Shown: in pieces, positions 2,502-63,661 of the stretch
Layout of the letters: each line of letters begins with the position of its first letter
Position numbering within the stretch: the first letter of the stretch is position 1
Source: Planctomycetaceae bacterium
Lineage (GTDB): Bacteria > Planctomycetota > Planctomycetia > Planctomycetales > Planctomycetaceae
Assembly (NCBI GenBank): GCA_021732415.1
Contig: JAKFVC010000103.1
Span: 1-64,000, forward strand
Length of the DNA stretch: 64,000 nt
Reading direction: 5' to 3'
Translations under genes and position numbers: made by a program
The notes under the pieces: model-generated
What the model saw: only the letters and a program-made list of their open reading frames with translations
What the model was told of the DNA's origin: nothing
Databases searched by the model: none

Positions 2502-2566
2502 GTAGCCCAACTCTTCGAGTCGGGTGATTTAGATCGAAATACTCCCGACTCAGAGAGTCGGGCGAC
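2502..2566. repeat. GTAGCCC/GAGTCGGG inverted repeat
   Basis: Begins GTAGCCC two bases after the FHA gene stop codon. The arms (2502-2525 and 2541-2566) contain the sub-palindrome CCCGACTC..GAGTCGGG. Same family as 23354-23445 and 63595-63661. Confidence 0.8.
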
Positions 2567-2572
2567 AATAAG

Positions 2573-2607
2573 ACAGCCCGGTTGCTCTCGCGAGCAACCG
2601 GGCTGTT
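2573..2607 (-). terminator. rho-independent terminator
   Basis: A perfect 15-bp stem (ACAGCCCGGTTGCTC at 2573-2587 with 2592-2606) and a TCGC loop. On the minus strand it is followed by a moderately T-rich stretch (TCTTATTG). It lies just downstream of the minus-strand gene ending at 2634. Confidence 0.8.
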
Positions 2608-2633
2608 GTGATGACAGTCGCACAATACGGCGT

Positions 2634-3620
2634 TTACTTCTTCGCCAGTTCCGTATCAGTTGCTGAACGCCAGGCGGTCTTTGCAAAGATTCCGTAACGG
2701 TTCGCATTGGCACTCACGCGAACTGCTGACAAGGCCGAACGTGTCCGTTGAACAGACGGCTGCCAGGTAACCTTCTCGTTCAATTCAAATCGCGGACCGA
2801 CGCTGGTCCCCTTCTCATCTTCGTCGCCGCCGATGCGCGGCTTCTTTGAAGGGACTACCGGCGGAGTCGCGGCGGGAGGTGCCTCAGCGCCCTCATTTGC
2901 CGGAGCGGCGGGAGGGACGACCTTCGGGGGAACATAGCCGTCAGTCTGAGTGGGATCGACGGTGTTCGGAGCCGGAGATTTCGGAGTTGCCGGAGTAAAC
3001 CCATCAGTGTTAGCCGCGCCGGGTGCGGGCGGAGGCGTCACTGGCGGCACAAAGTTGTCATTCGTGCCCATCGGAGGTGCATTACGATTGTCATACGCAG
3101 GTGACGGACCGCCTGGCGCGGGGGCCGGAGCCGGTGTCACTGGCGAATTGGCGCTACCAGCCGGAGGAGCCGTCCCCGGGGGATAGTTCACATTGCATTG
3201 ACCATTGGCACAGCCGCCGGGACCACACGAAGAAGCTCCGTAGCCACCATCGTAATAGCCGCCGGTTCCACAGGATGAGCAACCAGCACCGCCACAAGAG
3301 TTGCAACCACCCATCGCATAGCCACCGCCATAGTTGCTGTAACTACCGCCGCCACAGCTATTACAACCGCGGCCGAATCGACCCCAGCCACGATAACCCG
3401 TGTAGACCGGAGCCACTGGACCGCAGCAACCGCCACCATAGCCTGCGCCGTAGCCAGTGCCGTAATTGGTAGCGTGCCGAGCGTGAATGCTGCCGACGGG
3501 GCCGAATAGCGTGTCCCAGGCCCAGGGAATAATACCGGCCTCGGAAGTCGCGGGCACGACTCCCAGTACCGACGTGGCGATCACCAACGTCAGCAGGAAA
3601 CGGACTGCGGGACGTCTCAT
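2634..3620 (-). CDS. secreted Cys/Gly-rich then Pro-rich protein, function unknown
   Basis: 328 residues from the ATG at 3620; the frame is open further upstream but this ATG has AGAGG before it and starts a good signal peptide (MRRPAVRFLLTLVIATSVLG, cleavage near SEA-G). Residues about 45-160 are low-complexity Gly/Tyr/Cys with many CNSCGGG, CSSCG and CCGP units. Residues about 160-290 are Pro/Ala-rich linker. A short charged C-terminus contains KKPRIGGDEDEKG. No enzymatic motif is seen. The cysteine pairs suggest a disulphide-linked or metal-binding extracellular or wall-associated protein, which is inference. A terminator follows directly. Confidence 0.7.
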   Translation of the reverse strand: MRRPAVRFLLTLVIATSVLGVVPATSEAGIIPWAWDTLFGPVGSIHARHATNYGTGYGAGYGGGCCGPVAPVYTGYRGWGRFGRGCNSCGGGSYSNYGGGYAMGGCNSCGGAGCSSCGTGGYYDGGYGASSCGPGGCANGQCNVNYPPGTAPPAGSANSPVTPAPAPAPGGPSPAYDNRNAPPMGTNDNFVPPVTPPPAPGAANTDGFTPATPKSPAPNTVDPTQTDGYVPPKVVPPAAPANEGAEAPPAATPPVVPSKKPRIGGDEDEKGTSVGPRFELNEKVTWQPSVQRTRSALSAVRVSANANRYGIFAKTAWRSATDTELAKK

Positions 3621-3969
3621 GTGCTGTACCTCTTCATGAAGCCGGTGCCGGCAACGATCCTGTTGCACTCTCACCGAGAACCTGAGTCTGGGAACCACTG
3701 GAAAACGCACCCAGTGCAGTCGGTCTCGACTTTGGGAACTTCGCAGGCAAGGCCCCGCGGAAATTCGATCAATTCGCCAAACTTGAATCTATTTCAAACG
3801 GAAAGCGATTTTTTTCAATCGTAACAAAACGATTGGGCAAAATCCTCTAGCTTGCGCGAAATCGCCCAAGCCCTCAACTTTTCCTCACAAGACAATGTAG
3901 AATTCGCCGCAGATCCGTGTCAATCGCCCATCTTTACGTCAGACCAAATCCGCTGTGATGTTTTAGAAC

Positions 3970-5025
3970 ATGCTGGCATCTTCGTTTCATTCCGATCCGG
4001 TCACCCGATGTCGCCAGATTATCGCCCAGTTCTTTCTGGATGATCCGGCAGCAACGATTGTGCCGATCATGGGAAATGAGGGGTTTAGTGGTGCGCAAAT
4101 CTATCGTATTGAACTGGGTACACGGCGTTACAGCCTGAGATGCTGGCCCCTCGACGCACCGGAATTCGAACGCCTCAGCGGCCTGCACCGTCTACTGGAG
4201 CTGACTTGGAAATTGGGAGTGACGCAGATCGCGGTCCCACTGAGATCGCGTTCCGGCACCACCTTGCTGAGGGTCGATGAACACCTCTGGCATCTCGAAC
4301 CGTGGATGCCCGGCACGGCCGACTTTCACCAGCGTCCGACTCGACCGCGGCTGGGGGAGGCGATGCGTGTCCTGGCTCATTGGCATGCCGCGGCGCAAAC
4401 CTTCATTCCGCGCTCGAGCGAGCTTGCCTGGTTCGCATCTTCCCCGAGTGCCGTCTCGCCGGGCATGCAAGAACGTTGGCAGGCGATTCGACGATACCAG
4501 GAGAACGGCGACGCGATCTTTCGGCCGAAGCTTGCGAACTACGCCGATCTCGAGATCAAAGCGTACCTCGTCGAGATCTGGAAGGGCTTTCAAGCTCTCT
4601 CATCCGAGGTCGCAAGTAATTTGGCGGAATTAGGTTCCGCAACGGTCGCACTGCAACCGTGCCTGCGAGATGTCTGGCATGATCACCTGTTGTTTACAGG
4701 CGACCAACTGACCGGATTGATAGATCCCGGGGCCTGTCGATCTGACAACGTCACTACGGACCTTGCGCGCTTGCTGGGTAGCCTCGTGGAAGACGATCGT
4801 GCTGAGTGGAATTTTGCCCTCGATTGCTATCAAAAATTGCGGCCGCTTTCCCTGATCGAGTTCAAGATGTTGCACGCGTTCGACGCGAGCGGAGTGGTCT
4901 TGAGTGGCATGACGTGGCTGGATTGGTTGTTGGTTCAACAGCGGTCATTCACGAATCGGGAGAGGGTGCTGGAGAGATTGCAGGCGATCGTACGGCGTTT
5001 GAATAATCTCGCGGGGCGATCTTAG
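3970..5025 (+). CDS. APH-like phosphotransferase with variant catalytic loop
   Basis: 351 residues resembling the aminoglycoside phosphotransferase / choline kinase fold family. N-lobe: IYRIELGTRRYSLRCW. Linker: HLEPWMPG. A conserved helix follows (RVLAHWHAAA). The catalytic segment LRDVWHDHLLF aligns with the family motif HGDxHxxNxL: the catalytic Asp is kept, but the metal-binding Asn position is His. The following IDPGA takes the place of the DFG-like IDFG. The substrate is unknown and antibiotic resistance should not be assumed. The ATG at 3970 lacks a clear ribosome binding site. Confidence 0.65.
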   Translation: MLASSFHSDPVTRCRQIIAQFFLDDPAATIVPIMGNEGFSGAQIYRIELGTRRYSLRCWPLDAPEFERLSGLHRLLELTWKLGVTQIAVPLRSRSGTTLLRVDEHLWHLEPWMPGTADFHQRPTRPRLGEAMRVLAHWHAAAQTFIPRSSELAWFASSPSAVSPGMQERWQAIRRYQENGDAIFRPKLANYADLEIKAYLVEIWKGFQALSSEVASNLAELGSATVALQPCLRDVWHDHLLFTGDQLTGLIDPGACRSDNVTTDLARLLGSLVEDDRAEWNFALDCYQKLRPLSLIEFKMLHAFDASGVVLSGMTWLDWLLVQQRSFTNRERVLERLQAIVRRLNNLAGRS

Positions 5026-5086
5026 GGAAATCAGGTGAGCCGGGTGCGGTGAGGCCTTGGGCAATTCGATTTGTGATCCGACCCGA

Positions 5087-5170
5087 TGGGAGGGTGAGGC
5101 TCCTGCCGAACCGGATATTCTAGCGACGGTCGAAATACGCTTGCGGTTCGGCAGGAGCCTCACCCTCCCA
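5087..5170. repeat. long perfect inverted repeat (TGGGAGGGTGAGG family)
   Basis: Arms at 5087-5113 and 5144-5170 pair perfectly over 27 bases (TGGGAGGGTGAGGCTCCTGC and onward). A second, partly rearranged copy is at 41643-41738. Confidence 0.9.
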
Positions 5171-5204
5171 CAACGTCGAAATACCGAATTATCATCCACA
5201 AACG

Positions 5205-5233
5205 CAAAAACCCGGCCATCGAAACGGCCGGGT
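5205..5233 (-). terminator. rho-independent terminator of the ECF sigma gene
   Basis: Stem ACCCGGCC (5210-5217) with GGCCGGGT (5226-5233), followed on the minus strand by TTTTTGCG. Placed 30 bases after the sigma factor stop. Confidence 0.85.
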
Positions 5234-5262
5234 CTCATTTGTATTGTCGCAACATCGCCAAA

Positions 5263-6980: not shown

Positions 6981-7070
6981 TCGTTCTAGTTCCTCATTCG
7001 ATTCCTGATTGTTCTCATTTTCGACTCGAATCCCCGAAGCCGAGCGCTCAACTTCTGGGGATTGAGTGAG

Positions 7071-7336
7071 TGGGACGGGTCTCCTGGCCCGTCAGTCCGA
7101 TTGGTTTGTCGACCACTTCGTGACCTTTGTGATCTTCTGTTCAAAAAGACTGGAACAGAAGGTCACAAAGGACACGAAGGAATACAAAGCTCAGGAATTA
7201 CAAAAACTCTGGAGCATCGCCGAAATCGAGAGCTTCGTTGTTCATTATTGGACGCGGACGCTAGCAGCGTCCGCCACGTGGCGGACGCTGCTAGCGTCCG
7301 CGAACCGACTGACGGGCCTGGAGACCCGTCCCACGA
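7071..7336. repeat. composite nested inverted repeat (GTGGGACGGG outer arms)
   Basis: Outer arms at about 7071-7096 and 7309-7336 (GTGGGACGGGTCTCC / GGAGACCCGTCCCAC). Inside is an arm pair at about 7124-7177 of the GTGACCTTTGT..ACAAAGGACAC family, then a perfect 50-bp palindrome at 7253-7302 (half: CGCGGACGCTAGCAGCGTCC plus 5 more). Fills nearly all of the gap between the convergent genes ending at 6980 and 7339. Confidence 0.9.
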
Positions 7337-7338
7337 CG

Positions 7339-8985
7339 TCATCGCTCCGCGTCACTCAGGCGGTAGACTTGATAGAGACCGTTGCGATAGACCGGTTTGA
7401 TCGCAAACGGCCCCAATTTACTGGCGATAATGTAGTCGATTTTCGTGTGCTGCCGTAATTCACGAATCGCGGCTCGCGAAAATCCTCGCTGCAGGTGGCG
7501 GGCACTCCAGTCCGAGATAAATCGGAATCGCTCGTTCCAGGCGATGATGCCGAGGGCATCCTGCGGACAGTCCTTTTGGGACAGGTATTCCGCTCGCGAT
7601 GCATACCATTTGAGGGCCCAGCCTTCGTGAGCGGCAAAACAGAGGGCGTCGGGCGGAGTTTCTCGATCCACCCAGCGGCAGGCATCCACCCAATCCGCAA
7701 ACTGCTCGGCCGAGAGCCTGCTGGGGTTGCGATCCATTGCCGGCAGCGCGAGAGCTGCAACGAAACACGCTCCGCAGACTAGCCAGGGGATCGCCCACTG
7801 AGTCCCTAATCGAACGACTCCCAGGGTGAGCAACAGCGACGCCACCCAGGGAACCATCACGTCAGCGAGTCGGAATGGATAGAACTTCAACAAGCCTGCC
7901 AGGTGCGGTTTGTAGCGGACCCAGGTTTCTAACCAGTCATGAGCCGCGGGGATCACATTCATCCGCTGGAGCTGCAAGGCCACTTCCGGAATTGCCCGAA
8001 CGGCGATGCCTCCACTGGCAATCAGGACCGCCATCACGACGTATCGCAGAACCACATTCCAGCGGGTAGATGACCTCAAAAGGACAAGGTACAGCGTCAA
8101 AGACAACACCAGCAGCAGGGTGTAACAAACATAACCAGAGACTGAAAAATTCCACGGATCGAGATGATGTGCCAGGCGATAAAACACCTGGATGTAGTCG
8201 GCAGCATACGACTGGTTGCGATTCGCGCCCCGCAACATGGCCACTGCAGGTATTAGGCCAGGGGCCGCACAGACTCCCCACATCAGGGCACTGATAGACG
8301 CTAGCCGCCAGGGAAATCGGGTGCAAATGCGCCAGATCCGCCAATCGTCGACGACCACAGCCACCAGCAGCGCGGCCGAATTCCAGATTCCGACGACCGG
8401 ATGGAAACTGACGGCAGCTCCGGCCCATGCCGCCGCTGGTATCGGTTTCCCCGCGAGCGCTGCGGCCACCGACAACCACGCGCAGCCGTAGCTGAGAACC
8501 TTGGCCTCAATCCCACCGACCACCCATTCTCCGGACCAGTTGCCAATCGCCGCGAAGCCCAGAAAGATCCACGCGGACCACAATCCGCCCCACCGGATCG
8601 GGATGAGTTGACGAGCCAACGCACACCAGCCCGCGGCCAGCAGGCCCCAGCCGAGCACCCGGCCGACGATTGCGGTGAGTTCCAGGTTGAAGAACCGCGT
8701 CAAGCTTCCCACGGTGGCATAAAAGACGTAATGGGCATTCGCCGATTGCAGAAACGGATCGCGACTGCACCACGAGGGATCCCAAAAGTGCCGCGATTTC
8801 GTGAGATAGTGCGGCTCATTCACGCCGGGGATCGGCGACCGCAACGATGCGAATATCGCGAAACACAGCAGGACCAAAAGCCACTCCGCAAGGAGCCAGC
8901 GTCGGGCGTCAGGCACTTCAAGCGCTGTAGGACGGGTCTCCAGGCCCGTCCGTGAGACGCTCGAGTTAGGATCTGGAACCCCCAT
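7339..8985 (-). CDS. multi-spanning membrane protein (DUF6798-like)
   Basis: About 548 residues with 10 or more hydrophobic segments, starting with a helix at about 27-47 (LLAEWLLVLLCFAIF). A conserved loop, NEPHYLTKSRHFWDP, is followed by SRDPFLQSANAHYVFY. A C-terminal soluble part contains DWVDACRWVDRETPPDA. I associate this pattern with a planctomycete membrane family annotated DUF6798; the name is from memory. The overall look resembles GT-C type integral-membrane glycosyltransferases, but the function is unknown. The start is uncertain: ATGs at 9003 and 8985 both place a repeat arm (8927-8951) inside the coding sequence, and a GTG downstream of the repeat (8910) may be the true start. 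Confidence 0.7.
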   Translation of the reverse strand: MGVPDPNSSVSRTGLETRPTALEVPDARRWLLAEWLLVLLCFAIFASLRSPIPGVNEPHYLTKSRHFWDPSWCSRDPFLQSANAHYVFYATVGSLTRFFNLELTAIVGRVLGWGLLAAGWCALARQLIPIRWGGLWSAWIFLGFAAIGNWSGEWVVGGIEAKVLSYGCAWLSVAAALAGKPIPAAAWAGAAVSFHPVVGIWNSAALLVAVVVDDWRIWRICTRFPWRLASISALMWGVCAAPGLIPAVAMLRGANRNQSYAADYIQVFYRLAHHLDPWNFSVSGYVCYTLLLVLSLTLYLVLLRSSTRWNVVLRYVVMAVLIASGGIAVRAIPEVALQLQRMNVIPAAHDWLETWVRYKPHLAGLLKFYPFRLADVMVPWVASLLLTLGVVRLGTQWAIPWLVCGACFVAALALPAMDRNPSRLSAEQFADWVDACRWVDRETPPDALCFAAHEGWALKWYASRAEYLSQKDCPQDALGIIAWNERFRFISDWSARHLQRGFSRAAIRELRQHTKIDYIIASKLGPFAIKPVYRNGLYQVYRLSDAER

Positions 8986-9114
8986 TATTGTGGCGCAGTA
9001 CATCGAGGGAGTAGGTCAGGCTGTGCCTGACACGGGTCACGCGTTGACGCGGTCCGCAAATCGTCAGGCACAGCCTGACCTACGATCTTGGACGGGCCTG
9101 GAGACCCGTCCTAC
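8927..9114. repeat. nested pair of perfect inverted repeats
   Basis: Outer arms 8927-8951 and 9090-9114 pair perfectly over 25 bases (GTAGGACGGGTCTCCAGGCC and onward). Inside them, 9011-9031 and 9063-9083 pair perfectly over 21 bases (GTAGGTCAGGCTGTGCCTGA and C). Both levels begin GTAG and end CTAC. The element lies over the 5' end of the membrane-protein gene. Confidence 0.95.
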
Positions 9115-10707: not shown

Positions 10708-10738
10708 CAGCGTCAGCGTACCACGATTCAGGCGTATT

Positions 10739-10940
10739 GAAGCCCCGGCAGGGGCGTCCGCATAAAGCCTGGGGCGGAAGCCCCAGGAACAGCCGCTAAA
10801 CGACACTCACAAGCCCCGGCGGGGCGACCGAAATCGTCATGTCTCATTGTCGGTCGCCCCTCCGGGGCTTTGGACCCTCTAATACGCAGGAACCTGGGGC
10901 TTCCGCCCCAGGCTTTATGCGGACGCCCCTACCGGGGCTA
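10739..10940. repeat. nested inverted repeat, 200 bp
   Basis: Outer arms of about 48 bases (10740-10788 and 10892-10940; core GGGGCGTCCGCATAAAGCCT) enclose an inner pair (10811-10831 and 10850-10871; core AAGCCCCGGCGGGGCGACCG). Each arm also contains shorter palindromes. It lies 30 bases upstream of the DUF1570 gene. Confidence 0.9.
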
Positions 10941-11072
10941 CATTCAACCAATCCCAATCAGGCCTCATTTGAACATAAGAATGTTCGCTCATTCCCTTTG
11001 ACCATCGTTCATTTCCCCCAACATATTCCGCTATCGGTTTAAAGCACGGCCGGCAGCAATCTCGCCGCCCGA

Positions 11073-15661: not shown

Positions 15662-15769
15662 GTAGGATGGCCGCCTCGGCCGTCTTCTTTTTGGGTGAAC
15701 ACTCAAGATCTGACAGAGACACGCAACATCGAATAGCGAAGAACACGACGGCCGGGGCGGCCATCCTAC
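15662..15769. repeat. GTAGGATGGCC inverted repeat
   Basis: Arms 15662-15684 and 15747-15769 (GTAGGATGGCCGCCTCGGCC and onward), 22 of 23 bases paired. Begins 5 bases after the stop codon of the HMA-like gene. Confidence 0.9.
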
Positions 15770-15785
15770 AAGCCCCGCCCGCAAT

Positions 15786-15830
15786 AAAAAGCAGCCCGGA
15801 CGGCAACTTGCCATCCGGGCTGCTTTGTTT
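15786..15830. terminator. bidirectional rho-independent terminator
   Basis: AAGCAGCCCGGA pairs with TCCGGGCTGCTT; T-rich tracts on both strands (TTTGTTTTT on plus, TTTTTATTG on minus). Serves the convergent genes ending at 15656 and 15851. Confidence 0.9.
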
Positions 15831-22044: not shown

Positions 22045-22147
22045 GTAGCCTTCATCGCTCCGCGTGAAGATCGCCGAGCGCGCGAACAAACTGGTAAGGC
22101 ATTCGACCGCGAGTTCGGCTGACTTCACGCGGAGCGATGAAGGCTAC
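22045..22147. repeat. perfect inverted repeat overlapping a stop codon
   Basis: Arms 22045-22069 and 22123-22147 pair perfectly over 25 bases (GTAGCCTTCATCGCTCCGCG and onward). The final GGCTAC contains the TAG stop (complement of 22144-22146) of the minus-strand hydrolase. Confidence 0.95.
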
Positions 22148-23353: not shown

Positions 23354-23445
23354 GTAGCCCGACTATCTGAGTCGGGACTGCAGGCTGACTCTCCGAGTCG
23401 GGCATTTCTCTGACCAGAACGACCCGACTCAGAGAGTCGGGCTAC
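23354..23445. repeat. GTAGCCCGACT/AGTCGGGCTAC element with extra central unit
   Basis: Arms 23354-23376 and 23423-23445, with a third copy of the CTGACTC..GAGTCGGG hairpin between them (about 23383-23404). Ends 6 bases before the dus stop codon. The rest of the gap 23047-23353 holds nothing recognised. Confidence 0.85.
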
Positions 23446-27885: not shown

Positions 27886-27989
27886 GTAGCCTGACTCGTG
27901 AGCGGACTGGCGCTAGCCACCGGTTCTTCAATCCAACGCATAACTCAGGAACCGGCGGCTAGCGCCGTGCCGCTCACGAGTCGGGCTAC
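27886..27989. repeat. GTAGCCTGACTCG inverted repeat overlapping a stop codon
   Basis: Arms 27886-27929 and 27948-27989, with few mismatches. Begins 9 bases after the surface-protein stop. Its right end GGGCTAC contains the TAG stop (27986-27988) of the minus-strand DUF1501 gene. Confidence 0.95.
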
Positions 27990-29360: not shown

Positions 29361-29394
29361 TTTGGACTGCGGTGATTCATCACCGCAGTCCAAA
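29361..29394. repeat. near-perfect palindrome between paired genes
   Basis: TTTGGACTGCGGTGAT at 29361-29376 pairs perfectly with 29379-29394, with a 2-base centre. It sits in the 55-base gap between the DUF1549/DUF1553 and DUF1501 genes. Same sequence family as 39704-39844. Confidence 0.95.
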
Positions 29395-30995: not shown

Positions 30996-31030
30996 GACCG
31001 TCTCACGATTGTTGATTTGCCAGGTGATAC

Positions 31031-31200
31031 CGTGGGACGGGTCTCCAGGCCCGTCAGTCAAGATTGGCATTGGCCAATTCTATCTCGCCCACCCACGCGA
31101 ACACATCCAAGTCCTCGAGTCGAAGCAGTTTCCGACGGACTCCACCGACCAGTTTCGATGATGGCACGGGGACGGACGGGCCTGGAGACCCGTCCCACGA
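31031..31200. repeat. GTGGGACGGG element
   Basis: Outer arms 31031-31056 and about 31175-31200 (CGTGGGACGGGTCTCCAGGC and onward) pair perfectly; no inner B-type hairpin. Lies just upstream of the DUF1549/DUF1553 gene. The rest of the gap to 31416 is not recognised. Confidence 0.9.
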
Positions 31201-31416
31201 TACGCTTCTTGATCCTTCAACCTCCGCTTTTTGTCTGATGGCCGCACCATGCACGCGGTTTTGGTGAATTCACGCCAGTCGGGGGACGATGAAGAAGTGC
31301 CGCCCCTTCACAACTTCGTCTGATGTCATCCCAATCTTCCCAGACTCTCAATCACGCTGGGGCACTTCTCCATCCCACATTGCGATTTGAGCCACTGACC
31401 TGTCGTCCGCCATTCC

Positions 31417-35184: not shown

Positions 35185-35197
35185 CGTGCGTCGCGCG

Positions 35198-35387
35198 TCG
35201 TGGGACGGGTCTCCAGGCCCGTCCGTCCAGTTGTATGGAGATCACGAACTGTCCAATACAGTGCGAGAAGGCTTTGAGTCCTGCGTGTCCTTTGCGATCG
35301 TCTGTTCAAAACAAGAATTGGAACAGAAGGTCACAAAGGACACGAAGAAAGACAGAGGACGGACGGGCCTGGAGACCCGTCCCCCGA
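35198..35387. repeat. composite element: GTGGGACGGG arms enclosing a GTGTCCTTTG hairpin
   Basis: Outer arms 35198-35228 and 35357-35387 (one mismatch). Inner arms about 35284-35308 and 35321-35347 (GTGTCCTTTG.. with ..CAAAGGACAC). Starts 14 bases after the ExbD stop codon. Confidence 0.92.
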
Positions 35388-36454
35388 CGCCTGCGGCCTT
35401 CTGTTGTCATTCTTGCGACACTCTGTAGCGACGCACCCGGGTTTTGTAGGAACAACAATCTGCGGGTGTCGCATTTTCTTGCCCAAAGCGCAAATTGAGC
35501 CACTGGGCATCCCTTGACGCGTGAAATCTGTCCGCTTATCGTTTAACTACGATATTGATGACATTGCAACATGATTCACCCCCGCCTGACTCACCACTCC
35601 ACACAACCCATTCCGCACTCCCAAGTTACACCAACTGAATCATTAGCACTACGACGTCATTCGTTGCTGAGACTAGATCAGTTCCGTCGCGAATGTTTGA
35701 AAATTCGCGACGCGCACCCTCCGATTGGCACCCCGCTTGCTTTGAAAAAACTCCCATGATTCGCAGTCACGATTGACTTGAAACAGGATCTCGGACAGCA
35801 AGTCTCGCGAAAGATTCGCGACGCTTCGAAGGGAGTTCTGGGGCTGATTGGCCCTGGAGTTCACTTGAAGAAGAGGACCGAGAGTTGGAAATCCGAACCG
35901 CTAGGGTTTGCTGAATCGTTGAAAACAGAGCAGCCGTTATCGGCGATATTCTCGACACACGCTGTGTCGCACTGATTGTCACCGGTCACGCAAGGAACGA
36001 ACTTGAGGAAACTCGGGTGCAGTGTTCCTGGCTGATGTTTTCCTCGATTCAGGCAGAGTTGACCCAGATGGAATTGGCGGTTTGGAGATCAAACTCTCTA
36101 GGGTAAAAATCTTAATAGTCGTGTCACCTCGGCCGCTGTAATGCAAATTCGCGTGCTAGAGTTGGCTGTGTTCCTGATGCTGGCTGTTCACGCTACTCAT
36201 CAGGAATGACGCAGAGATTCGCAATGTCGGACAGATACGCGGGCCGAGCCCATCGGCCGTGAATATTTGACCTCAGTTGCACCACATGTCAGTGAAGCTG
36301 TGCAGGACGGACAGCGATCCGGATCACTCTCTTCCTCAGGGGGTGATTCGAAAAGTAGTGTTCCCAATTCGCCGGCGATTGTCCGCCAGGCAACCACAGC
36401 AGAACAGACATTCGTCCACGCCGAACGTGGGGTGACGAGGGGATTACGAGAATC
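35388..36454. other. long intergenic stretch without recognisable gene
   Basis: About 1.07 kb. Short open frames have no convincing composition or ribosome binding site. A 22-codon hydrophobic frame at 36141-36209 is the most protein-like piece but cannot be supported. No repeat of the listed families. It may contain an unrecognised RNA or decayed gene. Confidence 0.4.
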
Positions 36455-37155: not shown

Positions 37156-37239
37156 CATCAGCCGGCACGCGCTAGCGTCCGGTTCTCTCGGTAAATCGAG
37201 GTAGAACTCGAACCGGGGGCTAGCGCCCTGCGGCTGATG
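37156..37239. repeat. GCTAGCG-containing inverted repeat
   Basis: Arms 37156-37185 and 37210-37239 (CATCAGCCGGCACGCGCTAG and onward) pair with a few mismatches. Begins 15 bases after a stop codon. Confidence 0.8.
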
Positions 37240-37779: not shown

Positions 37780-37789
37780 GCATGGCGTG

Positions 37790-37979
37790 TCGTGGGACGG
37801 GTCTCCAGGCCCGTCCGTCCATTCGCAACGACTTCACACGAATAGTCGAATACTCTGAATCAGAATCTGAATCCTTCGTGTCCTTTGTGACCTTCTGTTC
37901 CAATTCTTTTTCTAACAGAAGGTCACAAAGGACACGAAGAAAGACAGGGGACGGACGGGCCTGGAGACCCGTCCCACGA
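37790..37979. repeat. composite element: GTGGGACGGG arms enclosing a GTGTCCTTTG hairpin
   Basis: Outer arms 37790-37820 and 37949-37979 pair perfectly over 31 bases. Inner arms 37875-37900 and 37914-37939 pair perfectly over 26 bases (CTTCGTGTCCTTTGTGACCT and onward). It fills the space between the convergent lipoprotein and AbgT genes and is the same design as 35198-35387. Confidence 0.97.
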
Positions 37980-37991
37980 TACGTTGGCCCC

Positions 37992-39591: not shown

Positions 39592-39613
39592 CGTTGCCCG
39601 ACTCTCTGAGCCG
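39592..39613. repeat. solo CCCGACTC..GAGCCGGG unit
   Basis: One half-element of the GTAGCCCGACTC family, 11 bases upstream of the AbgT start codon. Confidence 0.6.
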
Positions 39614-39703
39614 GGAGTTTTTCAAACCGTGGAATTCCCAACGGGAAGTGTCGGGTTACGGTTTCGCATAATAACGGAACGCGGCCGTCTGCGCAACCAG
39701 CGC

Positions 39704-39844
39704 ATTTGGACTGCGGTGATTCATCACCGCTTTCCAATTTCCGGTTGAGATACTTGGAGAGGCTAAGATTGCAAACGACACGGCAGTACGGACTGCCAGC
39801 AGTATGTGAATAGGAAAGCGGTGATGAATCACCGCAGTCCAAAT
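39704..39844. repeat. inverted repeat whose arms are themselves palindromic
   Basis: Arms 39704-39735 and 39813-39844 are exact reverse complements over 32 bases (ATTTGGACTGCGGTGATTCA and onward). Each contains GCGGTGAT..ATCACCGC. The right arm ends exactly one base before the stop codon of the cyclase gene. Confidence 0.95.
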
Positions 39845-43469: not shown

Positions 43470-43527
43470 CCGAGGTTGTGATTTCTCGTAGTTGAGGTTG
43501 CCAGACTTCGGGGTTCCGTCTTCCATC

Positions 43528-43585
43528 GGATAGGCTTCCAGCCTGTCAATCAAAAATGAATTCACGACAGGCTGGAAGCCTATCC
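43528..43585. repeat. GGATAGGCTTCCAGCCTGTC inverted repeat
   Basis: Arms 43528-43547 and 43566-43585 pair perfectly over 20 bases. Ends 8 bases before the tilS stop codon. Related copy at 55418-55480. Confidence 0.92.
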
Positions 43586-43593
43586 CACGGCGA

Positions 43594-44649
43594 TCAACGA
43601 CACTCGCGTGTCAGCATCAGCAAGCCTTCCCGGCGCTGAGCGGTCACTCGCCCCGGCAGCATGACGGTTGAGGTTTCGGAACCCACGACATCGACGAGGC
43701 GTTGCCAGTCGGCAAACCCCATCTGTCGTCGCGGCCAGCCCAGTTGTCGCCACAAGAGGACGAAGCACTCGCGAATGCGTTGCGGAGGTTGCTCCCTGAG
43801 CGGCCCACATCGCAAGCGGCAATGTTCCGGCGCAGCTTCGATCAATACCTCGCGCAGCAGTCCCTCGGCGAGCAGCAATTCATCCGCATAAATCTCTTGA
43901 GCCTGCTGCCCCAGACGAATCAAGGCCTGTTGTATTTGAGGATTGAACTCGCGCGCCAGTAGTGGCAGCAATTCATGGCGAATGCGATTACGAGTGAGTG
44001 TCGTATCGGTATTGGTCGAATCGGTCCGATAAGACTGCTCCTGCTCGGCGAGAAAGCGTACGAGCAGTTGGCGCTCGACGTGCAACAGTGGTCGAACAAG
44101 GGGAACGCCCCCGTGGCGGACGCTGCCAGCGTCCGTACCCAATCCTCTAGTCCCCTCATTCAACACTTCGTCCGCATGCATACCGCGCAGTCCAGCTAAC
44201 CCCGTCCCCCGAATGATATGATGCAGGATGGTCTCGGCCTGATCGTCCGCCGTATGAGCAACCGCAATTCCAGCACAGTGTTGCTCGGCGGCGATCCGCT
44301 GCAGAAAGTGCCGACGCACCAGCCGGGCCGTCCCTTCCAAGCCCAGCTTGGCGAGTTGGGGTGCTTCCGCAATCGACTCCCTTCCGATATGACACGGAAT
44401 CGACTTCAAGCGACAAAAGTCTTCGACCCAGGCAGCGTCAGCATCTGATTCGGCACCGCGAAGTTGATGATTCAGATGGGCCGCATGCAGCGTGATTTGG
44501 AGTTCATCGCGCAAGAGCCACAGCCCCAGCAACAACGACACGCTATCAGCACCTCCGGAAACCGCGACCAGCACACGGGTGCGTGTCAGACGACAGGATT
44601 CGCAGCCAGTTCGCAGGGCGGACAGAAACTCGGAAGTTGCGGATCCCAT
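43594..44649 (-). CDS. tilS: tRNA(Ile)-lysidine synthetase
   Basis: 351 residues. Modifies C34 of tRNA-Ile(CAU) to lysidine. PP-loop SGGADS at 31-36; N-type ATP pyrophosphatase core with HLNHQLRG, VAHTADDQAET, GLAGLRGM and RPLL; RTDSTN..TRNRIRHELLPLL at about 208-232. Short for the family, with only part of the C-terminal domain (about 330-350). Oddity: residues about 163-183 include an extra segment (GTDAGSVRHGGVP) encoded by an inverted-repeat element at 44118-44134, placed in frame between the GLRGM and RPLL blocks. The ATG at 44649 gives a normal N-terminus. Confidence 0.93.
   Translation of the reverse strand: MGSATSEFLSALRTGCESCRLTRTRVLVAVSGGADSVSLLLGLWLLRDELQITLHAAHLNHQLRGAESDADAAWVEDFCRLKSIPCHIGRESIAEAPQLAKLGLEGTARLVRRHFLQRIAAEQHCAGIAVAHTADDQAETILHHIIRGTGLAGLRGMHADEVLNEGTRGLGTDAGSVRHGGVPLVRPLLHVERQLLVRFLAEQEQSYRTDSTNTDTTLTRNRIRHELLPLLAREFNPQIQQALIRLGQQAQEIYADELLLAEGLLREVLIEAAPEHCRLRCGPLREQPPQRIRECFVLLWRQLGWPRRQMGFADWQRLVDVVGSETSTVMLPGRVTAQRREGLLMLTRECR
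44118..44134. repeat. repeat unit inside the tilS coding sequence
   Basis: GGACGCT, 3-nt loop, AGCGTCC within GTGGCGGACGCTGCCAGCGT. Same sequence type as the intergenic units at 7253-7302 and 62618-62671. It is translated in frame in tilS. Confidence 0.85.
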
Positions 44650-44686: not shown

Positions 44687-44779
44687 TCCCATAAGTCCCA
44701 TCCGTCCCATAAGTCCCATAAGTCCCATCGAATTCATGGGACTTATGGGACGGATGGGACCAATGGAACCAATGGGAAC
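44687..44779. repeat. inverted repeat built of CCCATAAGT modules
   Basis: The left side carries CCCATAAGT/CCCATCCGT modules; the right side carries ATGGGACTTATGGGACGGAT. About 25 bases pair perfectly (44698-44722 with 44736-44760). Fills the gap between tilS and carB. Confidence 0.85.
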
Positions 44780-51423: not shown

Positions 51424-51488
51424 GCCGACGCCCACTGGTTCAAAGTGAAGTTTGAAAACTTGCAGAAATCTCAGAGGTAGAAAAATAT

Positions 51489-51888
<400 letters not shown>

Positions 51889-52918: not shown

Positions 52919-53177
52919 CTGCAGCCTCCGCTACGAAAACCTGACAGCCCCAATGGAGCTGCCTAACAGGACCGAACATCTTCATTCCTGGTTTGGTATC
53001 GCGACCGACAGCCGAGAGCGCGATTCGGCTGGAAACGGTCGAGTTTCATCGCTCCGGAGGCCCGAGTGGAGCATTCATAGTTGTGTATTTAGATAGTCCG
53101 CGTCGCACCTCAGAGATTCATAACAATTTGGCCAACCGACACATGCATTCTTCTGCCATCACTTATCTTCGCATTTC

Positions 53178-53251
53178 CTTCGTGTCCTTTGTGTCCTTCT
53201 GTTTAAAAAGGATTGGGATTCGAACAGAAGGACACAAAGGACACAAAGAAG
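53178..53251. repeat. solo CTTCGTGTCCTTTG inverted repeat
   Basis: Arms about 53178-53206 and 53221-53251 (CTTCGTGTCCTTTGTGTCCT with the reverse complement). Same type as the inner hairpins at 35284 and 37875 but without the GTGGGACGGG flanks. Ends 16 bases before the C45-type gene stop. The rest of 52919-53177 is not recognised. Confidence 0.9.
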
Positions 53252-53267
53252 ATTCCAATCGAATTAT

Positions 53268-55404: not shown

Positions 55405-55417
55405 CAGCCGCATCACC

Positions 55418-55480
55418 GTAGGATAGGCTTCCAACCTGTCATTCCTAAATGCAGAATGACGGGTTGGAAGGCGATCCTAC
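55418..55480. repeat. GTAGGATAGGCTTCC inverted repeat
   Basis: Arms 55418-55444 and 55454-55480, with two mismatches, ends GTAGGAT / ATCCTAC. Begins 13 bases after a stop codon and ends 19 bases before the CHAD gene start. Confidence 0.9.
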
Positions 55481-59888: not shown

Positions 59889-59937
59889 GCCGTCCTCACT
59901 GAGTGGGTGAATTGGCTAACATCTGACGTTCAATCAC

Positions 59938-59975: not shown

Positions 59976-60385
59976 GAGCAGGAGACTTTTGCAATCCTTG
60001 AGGTGTCAGCCTCCACAATGGTGTTGAGAACAAACCGACGCCGAGTTTCACACTGTTCCGCATGTTTCGTGCTGTTGCTGCGCATGTCTCGATGCACACC
60101 GGACAAATTGCGCCCGCTCTTGTTGGAATTCTCACGTAATTACGGCTAGTCGCTGAACTTCCGATGTTTTAAGATGCCCGATCAGCCTTGACGCCTGCTG
60201 CCAACAGCGAGCGACAAGCTTGACCTCATCTTTGATTGCGTGATTCACTGCTCTGCAATTGTCCAGAGTTGCGAGTCCATACCCCGGTTCGGTCAACTCG
60301 AGACCGATGTTCGCGGTAGACGTTCTTGATAGCTTTTTTGCTGGTTGCGAACCGAATCATCTTGCTCAACAAGGAGTGTAACGTC

Positions 60386-61483
60386 ATGCCCACCCGACGC
60401 GACACGAATCATCACTGTACCCACCCGATCGCATTACCAACGATCTTGATCGCGTTGCTCAGCCTGCTGGCTGCTGGCTGTGACAAGATCCAAATTCCGG
60501 AAGTGGGTCAGCAAGCCGCGCCCGTGGCACCACCGGCCCCCACCACGGCAGGCGGTCCAGTCGCAGGACAAGCTGCCCCCGTGGCGCAGGCTCCCACCCC
60601 CGTGCCCGCCGCTCCAGCCGCCAAGCCGGACTCCAAGGCGGTCGTCGACGCGTTTCTTGCGAAAGCAAAGTCGAGCCCCCTGACAGATATCGATCTCATG
60701 CAGATCACCGATATCGAAGGCCTGGAACACTTGGAAGATGTGCAGGAGCTGAATCTGCTTGGCGCCGGAGTGACCAACACTGGCGTCGCCCGGTTGACGA
60801 AGTTTCCCAAGCTGGCCAAGCTCGACCTCAGTACCGGAGGAGTCACGAATGAGGGATTGAAAGTCATCAAGGACCTGCCGGAACTGCGTTCTCTGAGCTT
60901 GAATCATGTTCTGGCAGTTGATGATCTCACCATGTCGACGATCGCAGCCAATCCGGGAATCAAAGAGCTGTACCTTGACTCAACTCACATCACCGATGTG
61001 GGCTTGAACGAGTTGGAAAAACTCGAAAATCTGGAAGTTCTGAATATCAGCAGCACGTCGATTACCGGCGCCGGTTTTGAGCGGTTCAAGGGACACAAGC
61101 ATCTACGCTCGGTGATTGCTCAAAGGTCCCAATTGAAAGACGACGCACTCAAGTACCTCTTGGGTTCTCCGATTGAAGTCTTGGAAATTGACATGAGTGG
61201 AGTGACTGATATGGGAATGGTCCATATTGGGAAGATGAAAAATCTCAAACGACTTTCGATGGGTTTTTCGAACATCAGTGACTTTGGGATTAGAAAACTC
61301 GGTGTGATGAAAAACTTGGAATATGTCAATGCTCGCAACTGCGGCGGCATCTCCAATCTGCTGTTTGAGAAGCTCAAGACCTGCAAGAACCTGAAATATG
61401 TCTGTGTCACGGGAACGGGCGTGACGCCTGCCGCGTGTGTGATTATGAAGAAACTCATCCCGGGATGTGAGATTGCTTACTAA
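60386..61483 (+). CDS. leucine-rich-repeat lipoprotein
   Basis: 365 residues. Type II signal with lipobox LLAAGC32. A Pro/Ala linker (about 40-80) precedes 8 to 9 LRR units of the internalin-like/planctomycete type (LNLLGAGVTNTGVARLTK, LDLSTGGVTNEGLKVIKD, LYLDSTHITDVGLNELEK, LEIDMSGVTDMGMVHIGK). It should form a curved binding solenoid anchored at a membrane; ligand unknown. AAGGAG lies 9 bases before the ATG at 60386. Confidence 0.88.
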   Translation: MPTRRDTNHHCTHPIALPTILIALLSLLAAGCDKIQIPEVGQQAAPVAPPAPTTAGGPVAGQAAPVAQAPTPVPAAPAAKPDSKAVVDAFLAKAKSSPLTDIDLMQITDIEGLEHLEDVQELNLLGAGVTNTGVARLTKFPKLAKLDLSTGGVTNEGLKVIKDLPELRSLSLNHVLAVDDLTMSTIAANPGIKELYLDSTHITDVGLNELEKLENLEVLNISSTSITGAGFERFKGHKHLRSVIAQRSQLKDDALKYLLGSPIEVLEIDMSGVTDMGMVHIGKMKNLKRLSMGFSNISDFGIRKLGVMKNLEYVNARNCGGISNLLFEKLKTCKNLKYVCVTGTGVTPAACVIMKKLIPGCEIAY

Positions 61484-61541
61484 CATGTCGAATTCGCAAT
61501 TTCTGTGAGCTCGTCTGAGCGCAATAACTCGAGATATCCAA

Positions 61542-61608
61542 GTAGCCACGTTCGCCAGAACGTGGGAAAAATTGCCTCGGAGTCCCACGCTCTGGCGAGC
61601 GTGGCTAC
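61542..61608. repeat. GTAGCCACG inverted repeat
   Basis: Arms 61542-61567 and 61583-61608 (GTAGCCACGTTCGCCAGAAC; about 23 of 26 bases paired), each internally palindromic. It lies 22 bases before scpB. A solo arm of this family is at 72-96. Confidence 0.9.
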
Positions 61609-61630
61609 AGGACTGGCAGGGAGGCCACGG

Positions 61631-62614
61631 ATGGCTGACGAACAGGAATTCGAAGACGACGAGTTCGAACCTGAACTCGACTTCGCGGAAGCGGAATTCG
61701 CTGCCGACGAGGTTGAAGAAACTGGTTACAGCGATGAGTTGCTGTTCGCTCGATCGTCAGCAGACGGAGAATCGGACGATCTCTCCACGGAAGATCTGGA
61801 AGTGGCCTATCTGAAGGCACTCGCCGCAATGGAGTCCGCCGAATGGGCGGTTGCTGAATCAGGCGACGAGGCCGAAGATGAGCCCGCTGCGGACGAATCG
61901 CTGGAGCCTGCGATTGCAGCCTTGGCACCGGTCGGGGTTGAGATCGCCGGTACCGACTTCCTGGGTGGGAATTCGGCATCCGATCAACCCACTGCCATTG
62001 AAGTCACCAACGGCAGCAACACTGACGCCGACGTGCCAGTCGAAATTCCCGAGCCAAGGATTTCAGCAGCGCCGACCACGCCAGCACACGACGCGACCAT
62101 CAAGCCGTTACGTGTCATCGAAGCCTGTCTGTTTGTCGGCGGCCAACCCTTGTCAGCGAAGAAGCTTGCCGGATTGCTGGATGGCAATAATGAAGCGAGT
62201 GATATCGAGACGCTGATCGATGAGCTCAATCTGGAATATGCGGCGCAAGGGCGACCGTATGAGATCCGATTGGTGGATGGCGGTTACAAATTGACGTTGC
62301 GAGCCGAATTCGAAGCGATCCGCAGCCGAGTTTACGGCGTCGGCCCGCGCGATGTGAAGCTCTCACAGGACGTCCTGGAAGTCCTCGCCCTGGTGGCTTA
62401 TCAACAGCCGATCACCCAGGCCGCCGTTGAGGCTTGTAAGCCCAATTCGGCAAATATCCTGCGACAACTACTCCGACGCGAACTGATCAGCCTCAATCGC
62501 GTGGATCAGAGTCGCAAGGGGGTCGAATACCAGACTACCCCCCGCTTCCTGCAACTGTTCGGCCTGGCGCAGCTCAACGAACTGCCGCGTCCTGAGGATC
62601 TCAGTGTGAGGTAA
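61631..62614 (+). CDS. scpB: SMC-Scp complex subunit ScpB with acidic N-terminal extension
   Basis: 327 residues. The C-terminal about 170 residues are ScpB, the winged-helix kleisin-associated subunit of condensin: LRVIEACLFVGGQPLSAKKLA, IDELNLEYAAQGRPYEIRLVDGGYKL and LSQDVLEVLALVAYQQPITQAAVEA, ending LRQLLRRELI..GVEYQTTPRFLQLFGL. The first about 150 residues are an acidic, low-complexity extension absent from typical ScpB. GGGAGG lies 5 bases before the ATG at 61631; open frame upstream reads a repeat. scpA is not adjacent in the window. Confidence 0.92.
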   Translation: MADEQEFEDDEFEPELDFAEAEFAADEVEETGYSDELLFARSSADGESDDLSTEDLEVAYLKALAAMESAEWAVAESGDEAEDEPAADESLEPAIAALAPVGVEIAGTDFLGGNSASDQPTAIEVTNGSNTDADVPVEIPEPRISAAPTTPAHDATIKPLRVIEACLFVGGQPLSAKKLAGLLDGNNEASDIETLIDELNLEYAAQGRPYEIRLVDGGYKLTLRAEFEAIRSRVYGVGPRDVKLSQDVLEVLALVAYQQPITQAAVEACKPNSANILRQLLRRELISLNRVDQSRKGVEYQTTPRFLQLFGLAQLNELPRPEDLSVR

Positions 62615-62617
62615 CCC

Positions 62618-62671
62618 CCGTGGCAGACGCTGCTAGCGTCTGCATCCCGACGCGGACGGCGTCGGCCACGG
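62618..62671. repeat. GTGGC..GCCAC element
   Basis: CCGTGGCAGACGCTGCTAGC and GGCGTCGGCCACGG ends with internal AGACGCT/AGCGTCT and CGACGC/GCGTCG hairpins. Begins 4 bases after the scpB stop. Confidence 0.8.
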
Positions 62672-62818
62672 AACAGTCGCCTCATTCAGTCGCATCGCAT
62701 CACCCATTCTCGATGTCGGGGACGTCGGATGTTCCGGTCGGGGCGTTTCTGATACGCTGTGTTGACCAACACTTGGGTTGAGCCGCCTCGTAAATTGCAT
62801 CGTGAAAACTGACCTCCA

Positions 62819-63553
62819 ATGACCGCCGAACCTGTACGTCTTTCCAAACTCATGGCCCAACGCGGGCTCTGCTCACGACGTGAAGCGGATGAATACATCG
62901 AGCGGGGCCTGGTCCTGGTCGACGGCGTCCGGATCAGCACTCTGGGATCCAAAGTCTTCGAACATCAGACGATCACCTTGGAAGCGGCAGCACAGCAGAT
63001 CCAGGACGAGCGAGTCACGATCCTGGTGAATAAGCCGGTCGGCTACGTCTCGGGCCAGCCTGAGCGGGAATATCCTCCCGCGGCAAAATTGATTACCCCG
63101 GAGAATCAAGATCCGAACGTCGCGCCGCAGCAACTGTTGCGTGAGCATTTCGATGGCCTGGCGCCCGCGGGCCGCTTGGACATCGATTCCCGCGGCCTGC
63201 TGGTCTTCACCAACGACGGCCGCATCGCCAAACTGTTGACCTCCGAGCGGGGCGAAATCGAAAAGGAATACATGGTCCGGTTCCGCGGCGAATTGCGGGA
63301 AGAACAACTCGCCATGCTGCGTGAGGGGCTCAGCCTGGATGGCAAGAAACTGCGACCAGCCCGAGTCGAACTGATTTCCGAGGACCGCTTGCGGTTCGAA
63401 CTGCACGAGGGCCGTCATCGCCAGATTCGACGCATGTGCGATGCAGTCGGATTGCAAATCCTCAGTCTAATGCGCGTCCGGATCGGCAAAGTACGGCTCG
63501 GACAATTGGCCGAAGGTTGCTGGCGATTCCTGCGTCCGGATGAGAGTTTCTGA
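62819..63553 (+). CDS. RsuA/RluB/RluF-type rRNA pseudouridine synthase
   Basis: 244 residues. An S4 RNA-binding domain (about 6-52: [20 protein letters not shown]) precedes the synthase domain: [12 protein letters not shown] (about 69-80), catalytic Asp121 in [29 protein letters not shown], and [21 protein letters not shown]. Isomerises a uridine of rRNA; the NKPVGYVS text is closest to RluF, but the exact target (23S or 16S) cannot be set from sequence. It follows scpB at 204 bases with a repeat between; scpB-rluB adjacency is widespread in bacteria. Confidence 0.92.
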
Positions 63554-63594
63554 ACCTGGCCCCAGTCAAATGTGTCGTTCTGCGAAGCAGAACC

Positions 63595-63661
63595 GTAGCC
63601 CGACTCTCCGAGTCGGGTTCTTCGTCGTCTTCGACGCACCCGACTCGGAGAGTCGGGCTAC
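63595..63661. repeat. GTAGCCCGACTC inverted repeat, perfect
   Basis: Arms 63595-63617 and 63639-63661 pair perfectly over 23 bases, ends GTAGCCC / GGGCTAC. Each arm is itself nearly palindromic (CCCGACTC..GAGTCGGG). Confidence 0.95.

What the first reader, a model, noticed from the sequence alone, without database searches (positions are those of the whole stretch)
2502..63661. A dense set of inverted-repeat elements with shared GTAG...CTAC (or GTGGGA...TCCCAC) ends
Around thirty intergenic inverted repeats of about ten sequence families occur in 64 kb. Many have perfect arms of 20-31 nt. Families with unrelated interiors share their termini: GTAGCCC..GGGCTAC (63595-63661, 23354-23445), GTAGGA..TCCTAC (8927-9114, 15662-15769, 55418-55480), GTAGGTC..GACCTAC (9011-9083), GTAGCCT..GGCTAC (22045-22147, 27886-27989), GTAGCCACG..CGTGGCTAC (61542-61608). 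Perfect arm pairing implies recent spread or ongoing correction. They carry no gene, so they would be non-autonomous elements moved or maintained by an enzyme elsewhere, perhaps in the manner of REP/RAYT or MITE systems. I know of no description of this set.
Basis: partly seen in the sequence, partly recalled or inferred. Interest (0 to 1): 0.72.

Follow-up and report, generated by a model that had tools for sequence, protein, structure and literature searches.

The report
Nested REP/RAYT hairpin repeat families
The hairpin repeats between these genes are mostly the bacterial 'REP' kind of miniature mobile DNA, several families of which are each matched by a copying-enzyme gene elsewhere in the genome, and one family often carries other repeats inside it.

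Summary
The inverted repeats are real, mostly intergenic and genome-wide. Those with GTAG/GTGG ends are mainly REPs: a GT[AG]G tag followed by its own hairpin, paired head-to-head as REPINs. Genome-wide the three main families have 539 (A), 516 (B) and 535 (C) arms at 1, 1 and 2 mismatches, with 0 reversed-pattern controls. Families A, C and E each have a REP-associated tyrosine transposase (RAYT) gene in this genome flanked by that family's own inverted REPs; a 65%-identical RAYT has a variant REP. This explains the shared ends. GTAG/GTGG REPs and RAYTs are published, with several families in the planctomycete R. baltica (PMC3733652), so the kind is known. Other repeats in the window (X, Y, T, Z, P, Q, an IS200-like element) are different. 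Less usual: family A pairs enclose 55-331 nt interiors, mostly unrelated, 17 of 42 of which hold an arm of another family (random intergenic stretches 5.9%). Copies sharing an interior have unrelated flanks in 8 of 8 pairs tested. Arms are better conserved than flanks and interiors at 4 orthologous sites. No cognate RAYT was found for B, D, F, I or J.

The parts
7070..7334 (.). Family A REP pair (GTGGGACGGGTCTCCAGGCCCGTC, head-to-head) with a nested X pair (7116-7179) and a tail-to-tail pair of B arms (7255-7300) in its interior
   Evidence: absent from the orthologous site of G002 (27 nt there) and of G003
8927..9114 (.). Family A pair (GTAG variant) with a nested family D REPIN (9011-9083)
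   Evidence: G002 has decayed A arms at the site but no D
31028..31202 (.). Family A pair
   Evidence: G003 has a different inverted repeat there
35195..35390 (.). Family A pair with a nested X pair (35281-35347); 80% identical over 193 nt to 37786-37983, no flank similarity
   Evidence: absent in G003
37786..37983 (.). Family A pair with a nested X pair (37874-37939), present at the same site in G003
2502..2566 (.). Family C REPIN (GTAGCCCGACTCTCYGAGTCGGG)
   Evidence: F-type REPIN at this site in G003
23354..23445 (.). Family C REPIN with an extra C-like arm at 23380-23402
   Evidence: different repeat in G003
39593..39615 (+). Single degenerate family C arm
63595..63661 (.). Family C REPIN
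15662..15769 (.). Family E REPIN (GTAGGATGGCCGCCYCGGCCGTC)
   Evidence: absent in G002, other repeats in G003
1216..1238 (+). Single family B arm (GTGGCNGACGCTGCYAGCGTCNG)
44113..44135 (+). Single family B arm inside a predicted gene
62620..62669 (.). Family B REPIN (arms with different compensated stems)
61542..61608 (.). Family F REPIN (GTAGCCACGCTCGCCAGAGCGTGG)
73..96 (-). Single family F arm
43525..43588 (.). Family I pair (one head decayed)
55418..55480 (.). Family I pair (GTAGGATAGGCTTCCAACCTGTC, imperfect stem)
22045..22147 (.). Family G-type pair (GTAGCCTTCATCGCTCCGCGTGAAG)
   Evidence: 83% match to a family G pair nested in a family A pair on L088
25272..25374 (.). Family J pair (GTCGCCTGACTCATGAGCGG...); begins like a tag but no tag-plus-hairpin arm was scored
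   Evidence: left half seen at the G003 site, contig ends inside
27886..27989 (.). Family J pair (GTAGCCTGACTCGTGAGCGG...)
   Evidence: right half seen at the G003 site, contig ends inside
53168..53258 (.). Family X inverted repeat (CTTCGTGTCCTTTGTGTCCTTCTGTT), no GTRG tag
   Evidence: absent in G002 (6 nt there)
10738..10942 (.). IS200-like terminal-inverted-repeat element (H) without its gene; not filed as a REPIN
   Evidence: arms resemble the ends flanking Y1 transposase genes L011 and L013; L011 is NCBIfam transpos_IS200, L013 was not scanned
5087..5170 (.). Inverted repeat T (TGGGAGGGTGAGGCTCC...), no GTRG tag
   Evidence: 10 nt at the G003 site
37156..37239 (.). Inverted repeat Z, no GTRG tag
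   Evidence: 40 nt in G003 and 8 nt in G002 at the site
39704..39844 (.). Inverted repeat Y (ACTGCGGTGATTCATCACCGC), no GTRG tag; single palindrome copy at 29366-29389
   Evidence: other repeats at both sites in G003

Best explanation
The GTAG/GTGG-ended elements are REPINs: two inverted REPs, each a GT[AG]G tag plus a short hairpin (7-9 bp in the families scored). They are copied as units into mostly intergenic DNA by RAYTs (HUH/Y1 single-strand transposases) encoded elsewhere in the genome, one found for each of families A, C and E. The tag is common because the RAYT reads it as a guide; the stem differs because each RAYT has its own REP. Family A is a looser version: DNA bracketed by two A arms is carried, including other REPINs and, once, the RAYT gene itself, and its interior decays and collects insertions while the arms largely stay. 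Shown by sequence: REP anatomy, copy number, cognate RAYT flanking, whole A units at unrelated sites, differences between congeners, and arm conservation at 4 sites. Inferred: that these RAYTs do the cutting and joining, and by which strand chemistry; that interiors are cargo rather than bystanders.
For: Arm anatomy. Genome-wide arms with 0 reversed controls: A 539, B 516, C 535. 13 Y1_Tnp genes in the genome plus one more by protein search. One RAYT each is flanked by A, C and E REPs; a RAYT 65% identical to the A one is flanked by variant REP A2. In relatives 11 of 28 fetched RAYT loci are flanked by matching outward-tagged inverted REPs, against 3 of 400 random positions in this genome. The A, C and E RAYTs have NF047646 REP_Tyr_transpos as their only NCBIfam match, and a five-RAYT profile finds TnpA-REP 4ER8 first in the PDB; NHxH, WQ and YxxxN are invariant in 5 of 5. 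Head-to-head/tail-to-tail/tandem neighbours within 450 nt: A 42/0/0, B 31/2/1, C 25/0/7. Family B stem position 6/22 is C-G in 32, A-T in 27, G-C in 23 of 88. 16 of 348 GTRG arms lie deep in predicted genes and 18 more within 60 nt of a gene edge, against 65% and 6% of random positions. A units sharing interiors show no flank similarity in 8 of 8 tested pairs.
Against: The A, C and E RAYTs score below the NCBIfam cut-off (53.6-68.5 against 80 bits), and in the PDB an ordinary transposase, 2xm3, scores nearly as well as 4ER8 (E 0.0024 against 0.0017). 17 of 28 RAYT loci in relatives did not pass the flanking test (in two the script found no HUH motif). No cognate RAYT was found for B, D, F, I or J, although B has 516 arms. 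G003 keeps 90 A arms but only two remoter RAYT relatives (38% and 43% identity) were seen in its fragmented, 87% complete assembly. Empty sites are too diverged to give exact junctions or target sites. Within family A, GTAG-tagged arms are preceded by CC (7 of 14) more often than by the CT (2 of 14) that the published guide rule predicts. At one of the 4 orthologous sites the arms agree at only 40 of 48 bases.
Confidence: 0.9

Rival explanations
1. The elements are MITEs moved by a DDE transposase, the GTAG..CTAC being plain terminal inverted repeats.
For: Short, gene-free, inverted ends, polymorphic between congeners.
Against: In most GTRG families the arm is itself a hairpin behind the tag. 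The genes found between A, C and E ends are Y1 HUH transposases. I did not search for DDE transposases flanked by these ends.
Confidence: 0.04
2. They are transcription terminators or RNA-stabilising hairpins kept by selection, not mobile DNA.
For: Mostly intergenic, mildly enriched between convergent genes (77 of 274 intergenic arms, 28%, against about 20% of random intergenic positions); stem covariation in B.
Against: Orthologous sites in congeners mostly lack the element (16 of 20 inspected in G003, 11 of 13 in G002). Separate terminator-like hairpins are conserved beside two of them in all three species (E15662, C2502). 47 of 348 GTRG arms are between divergent genes.
Confidence: 0.03
3. 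Family A pairs are two independently inserted REPs, the interior being ordinary intergenic DNA rather than cargo.
For: Most interiors are mutually unrelated (42 pairs fall in 26 groups, the largest, of 11, linked by shared nested X or B repeats); lengths 102-378 nt.
Against: All 42 close pairs are head-to-head with 0 of other orientations; copies sharing an interior sit in unrelated flanks, at least one pair inverted relative to each other.
Confidence: 0.15

Closest known systems
GTAG-tagged REP families and REPtrons (Di Nocera et al. 2013, PMC3733652; Nunvar et al. 2010, PMC2817692)
   Same: GT(A/G)G tag, short GC-rich hairpin, many copies, head-to-head dimers, several families per genome with repeat-specific RAYTs, reported in R. 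baltica and O. terrae of the PVC group
   Different: These exact families were not found described in my searches. PMC3733652 gives most dimer spacers as 20-100 bp and, as a rule of thumb, conserved in head-to-head dimers, whereas family A spacers here are 55-331 nt, mostly unrelated and often hold other repeats. Precedents exist: the same paper notes spacers differing in sequence and size, DNA inserted between dimer partners, GTAG-15 dimers inside longer palindromes and CGTC-1 elements interleaved with other repeats; PMC2817692 notes unrelated inter-REP segments of varied length in clusters
REPINs of Pseudomonas fluorescens SBW25 (Bertels and Rainey 2011, PMC3116915)
   Same: Inverted REP pair taken as the replicative unit, arms conserved, spacer less so, compensatory changes
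   Different: SBW25 GI pairs have 71 bp between the first residues of their two 16-mers and length is called a critical feature; families B, C, D, F, X here are also near-fixed in length, family A is not
E. coli TnpA-REP (PDB 4ER8) and REP recognition (PMC8266576)
   Same: Best PDB match to the RAYT profile here; HUH, WQ and tyrosine motifs; GTAG guide
   Different: A, C and E RAYTs have an extra N-terminal part (about 230-290 aa as read, the chain 165 residues) and fall below NCBIfam's equivalog cut-off
IS200/IS605 elements with hairpin ends
   Same: Window element H10738 has ends like those flanking Y1 transposase genes L011 (IS200 by NCBIfam) and L013
   Different: Long terminal inverted repeats rather than REP pairs; L011's inner hairpin begins GTAG, the window copy's AAAG, so the border between the two kinds is not sharp

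Membership tests
GTAG/GTGG REP (REPIN) | GT[AG]G tag 0-2 nt before a paired stem with a short loop | tested here: met
   tag GTGG or GTAG in 91 of 93 A arms, GTGG in 82 of 88 B arms, GTAG in 64 of 78 C arms; stems 7-9 bp. Not met for J; imperfect stem for I
GTAG/GTGG REP (REPIN) | High copy number, intergenic | tested here: met
   539, 516, 535 arms for A, B, C; D to I have 7-21 arms in the 1.264 Mb sample; 16 of 348 arms deep in genes
GTAG/GTGG REP (REPIN) | Inverted doublet as the unit of spread | tested here: met
   Head-to-head pairs dominate; whole A units with no flank similarity in 8 of 8 pairs; unit copying was tested for A only
GTAG/GTGG REP (REPIN) | Spacer of near-constant length within a family | tested here: inconclusive
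   Near-constant for most B, C, D, F, G pairs, not for A (102-378 nt overall), E (88-280) or C2 (68-219)
GTAG/GTGG REP (REPIN) | Cognate RAYT flanked by the same REPs | tested here: inconclusive
   Met for A, C, E in this genome and by resemblance for G in a relative; none found for B, D, F, I, J
RAYT (TnpA-REP) | HUH and tyrosine motifs, WQ motif of GTAG-reading subclasses | tested here: met
   Invariant in the 5 aligned RAYTs; aligned with 4ER8; motif meaning from PMC6006769 passages
RAYT (TnpA-REP) | NCBIfam NF047646 above cut-off | tested here: not met
   A, C, E RAYTs 59.4, 53.6, 68.5 bits against 80, though it is their only match at E 0.001; L016 passes with 106 bits
RAYT (TnpA-REP) | Cleaves cognate single-stranded REP | not testable with these tools
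   needs protein assay
MITE of a DDE transposon | Target-site duplication and DDE transposase with the same ends | not tested
   Empty sites in congeners were too diverged for exact junctions; no DDE search was made

The most novel reading that the evidence does not exclude
Family A is a cargo-carrying REPIN: its RAYT copies any DNA bracketed by two inverted A REPs, so the pair serves as a vehicle and nest for other REPIN families, and its own transposase gene is just one of many interiors. It would be a nested, self-assembling hierarchy of single-strand mobile elements rather than a set of fixed hairpins.
Probability: 0.35. Interest if true: 0.6.

Novelty: new member of a known kind. Interest (0 to 1): 0.42.

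Why it matters
It gives a planctomycete-like genome in which about eight GTRG REP families coexist, three with their own RAYT, so REP/RAYT specificity can be compared inside one cell. Three congeners at roughly 70-90% identity in aligned stretches let gain, loss and arm correction be followed. If family A really carries cargo, RAYTs do more than copy a short hairpin of set length, which bears on how REP pairs spread and on why so many intergenic sites here swap one hairpin for another.

Tried and rejected
Terminator reading: set aside because elements turn over at orthologous sites while separate terminator-like hairpins stay at two of them. 'GTAG ends by chance': rejected by the outer/inner comparison; the earlier head-permutation test on the window alone was weaker, with 17 GTRG hits at score >=7 against 1-11 for nine other heads, some of which may overlap the same elements. 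A interiors against the sample: 34 of 42 match at least one other place; in 7 of these all matches overlap a catalogued arm, and I did not classify the rest. I did not search interiors for protein-coding cargo; the RAYT gene was noted only because it was searched for. Cleavage-site guide rule (GTAG reads CT, GTGG reads CC, shown for one flexible RAYT, PMC8266576 passages): the two bases before the tag are CT 34/CC 42 for GTAG and CT 0/CC 90 for GTGG, other dinucleotides left out, in line with it, but copies within a few families are not independent and family A's own GTAG arms go against it; I keep it as a hint. Six weak protein hits (L048-L053): L050 is the Y1 gene at C5 already found (as L019); the other five cover query residues 2-44, which in the A RAYT reading are the translated A arm and what follows, so I take them as A arms, not genes. 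A phmmer search of one RAYT against the PDB found nothing relevant; the profile did. Exact insertion junctions could not be read.
Full report
WHAT WAS CHECKED. In 1.264 Mb of the same genome (window plus 60 stretches) there are 273 exact inverted repeats with arms of 16 nt or more within 400 nt, and none in a Markov resample of 444 kb (93 observed there). GTAG or GTGG sits in the outer 9 nt of 75 of 273 arms but in the inner 9 nt of only 9. So the shared ends are real, for about a quarter of the repeats; the rest are other kinds or unclassified.

ANATOMY. In most GTRG families each arm is a tag plus its own hairpin, for example GTGG-GACGGGTCTCCAGGCCCGTC (A), GTGG-CNGACGCTGCYAGCGTCNG (B), GTAG-CCCGACTCTCYGAGTCGGG (C), GTAG-GATGGCCGCCCCGGCCGTC (E). 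At B stem position 6/22 the pair is C-G in 32, A-T in 27 and G-C in 23 of 88 arms, in a search that left both letters free, so the hairpin is what is kept. Arms lie head-to-head, tags outward; neighbours within 450 nt are head-to-head/tail-to-tail/tandem A 42/0/0, B 31/2/1, C 25/0/7. In the sample the arms number A 93, B 88, C 78, C2 29, D 12, E 21, F 8, G 7, I 12; genome-wide A 539, B 516, C 535 (1, 1 and 2 mismatches), with 0 matches to the reversed patterns. Of these 348 sampled arms, 16 lie deep in predicted genes, 18 within 60 nt of a gene edge, 274 between genes and 40 at stretch ends, against 65% of random positions deep in genes; the gene calls are my own crude ones.

THE ENZYMES. The genome has 13 Y1_Tnp genes and a further one found by protein search (L045). 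Three RAYTs are flanked by the window's families: L023 by single A arms, L022 by family C pairs on both sides, L020 by family E pairs on both sides. L045, 65% identical to the A RAYT, is flanked by a variant, GTGGGACGGGTCTCCGACCCGTC, which was not met in 464 kb at 4 mismatches. L016 carries another family, also not met in that sample; L015 carries one that I did not search; L011 and L013 carry long ends like window element H10738. In 79 genomes, own included, 24 have a relative of the A RAYT; of 28 loci fetched from relatives, 11 have matching outward-tagged inverted REPs around the gene, against 3 of 400 random places in this REP-rich genome. One of these, L065 from another genus, carries REPs like family G. 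The A, C and E RAYTs match only NCBIfam's REP-associated tyrosine transposase, below its cut-off, and a five-sequence profile finds E. coli TnpA-REP (4ER8) first in the PDB (E 0.0017), closely followed by a transposase, 2xm3 (0.0024). NHxH, WQ and YxxxN are invariant in all five. For B, D, F, I and J no RAYT was found with their arms in the 42 loci examined.

SPREAD AND TURNOVER. Three congeners are held. Against G003 I inspected 20 window sites by alignment: 3 share the element (A37786; J25272 and J27886, each half seen because a contig ends there), 1 has a related IS200-like element (H10738), and 16 lack it. By eye, 9 of the 16 have another inverted repeat at the same place, 2 a short gap and 5 other sequence. 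Against G002, 13 sites: A8927 shared with decayed arms and without the nested D, F61542 partly related, 11 without. Sites where contigs broke or that I did not align are left out, among them B44113 and P44687, which fall inside long aligned blocks. Clear absences include A7070 in G002 (27 nt against 278), Z37156 (8 nt in G002, 40 in G003), T5087 (10 nt in G003) and X53168 (6 nt in G002). Family A has 539 arms here, 90 in G003, 1 in G002, 0 in G001, 5 and 8 in two more distant genomes, and none in the other 73 of 79.

FAMILY A. Pair length is near-fixed for most pairs of B, C, D, F, G and X, but 102-378 nt for A and 88-280 for E; C2 also varies, 68-219. The 42 sampled A interiors fall in 26 groups by similarity, the largest linked through shared nested X or B repeats. 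Seventeen of 42 hold an arm of another catalogued family, against 237 of 4000 random 140-nt intergenic stretches; A interiors vary in length, so the two are not exactly matched. Pairs of seven other families hold one in 3 of 83 cases. Where two A copies share an interior, elements align at 72-88% but flanks of 600 nt show no similarity in 8 of 8 pairs tested, at least one of them inverted: the unit moved, interior included. Some of these copies lie only 2-4 kb apart. At four orthologous pairs between this genome and G003 the arms agree at 179 of 192 bases, interiors at 406 of 538 aligned bases (gaps left out), 250-nt flanks at 1675 of 1944. These four are a choice: A37786 plus three of the pairs on the G003 contigs fetched, searched back here because they carry A arms, so they say nothing about how often sites are shared. 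One site has 40 of 48 arm bases, so arms are not always kept. A fifth pair (L211) has in this genome an A-like unit lying within truncated A arms and was left out of that count. The A RAYT gene lies between one A pair of about 818 nt, as one interior among many.

MECHANISM. Published for other bacteria: RAYTs recognise the tag and hairpin in single-stranded DNA and cut at a nearby dinucleotide, CT in the cases tested and CA or CC in one flexible case (PMC8266576: abstract, one section and search passages seen). I infer the same here. The two bases before the tag, CT 34/CC 42 for GTAG and CT 0/CC 90 for GTGG, fit the published guide rule across families but not within family A. How interiors of varied length are carried is not shown.

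KNOWN OR NEW. PMC3733652 (abstract, sections on GTAG families, dimers, other repeats and transposases, and search passages seen) describes GTAG families, several in R. baltica, GTGG variants in O. terrae, repeat-specific REPtrons, and also spacers of varied sequence and size and REP dimers associated with other repeats. PMC2817692 (search passages) gives the GT(A/G)G head and unrelated inter-REP segments in clusters. PMC3116915 (search passages) defines REPINs. PMC6006769 (search passages) treats TnpA classes including planctomycetes. Four library searches joining REP, RAYT, REPIN, MITE or palindromic terms with planctomycetes or Rhodopirellula and one with 'nested' (20 of 416 listed) showed in their listings no account of these families or of REPINs nested in REPINs; supplements were not readable. 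So: new members of a known kind, with family A as a possible variant. That the organism is planctomycete-like is my inference from named relatives of its RAYT.

Noticed in passing
51488-51884, - strand: Bacterial RNase P RNA class A gene (291.6 bits), the only Rfam match at gathering score in the window.
   Followed up: no
62613-62723: G002 and G003 both have about 2.5 kb between the flanks where this genome has 108 nt with a family B REPIN, suggesting a loss here with a REPIN at the join.
   Followed up: partly
window 2567-2620 and 15770-15830: Terminator-like hairpins (AACAGCCCGG...CCGGGCTGTT) are conserved in all three congeners next to places where REPINs differ.
   Followed up: partly
G000:C1, loci L017 and L018: Two near-identical 226-codon Y1 transposase frames 2.8 kb apart with AAAGGGGACAGGTCCATT repeats rather than REPs nearby.
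   Followed up: no
7116-7179, 35281-35347, 37874-37939, 53168-53258: Family X (CTTCGTGTCCTTTGTGTCCTTCTGTT) has no GTRG tag, a pair length of 63-70 nt (20 sampled pairs), and lies inside family A pairs in 8 of 42 sampled cases; what moves it is unknown.
   Followed up: partly
G000, G003, G002 genome-wide: Family B has 516, 212 and 117 arms in three congeners (2 in G001) yet no RAYT with its arms was found: an orphan REP family so far.
   Followed up: partly
44687-44777: Inverted repeat built of TCCCATAAGTCCCAT-like units; similar stretches occur inside a family A pair on L085 and elsewhere.
   Followed up: no
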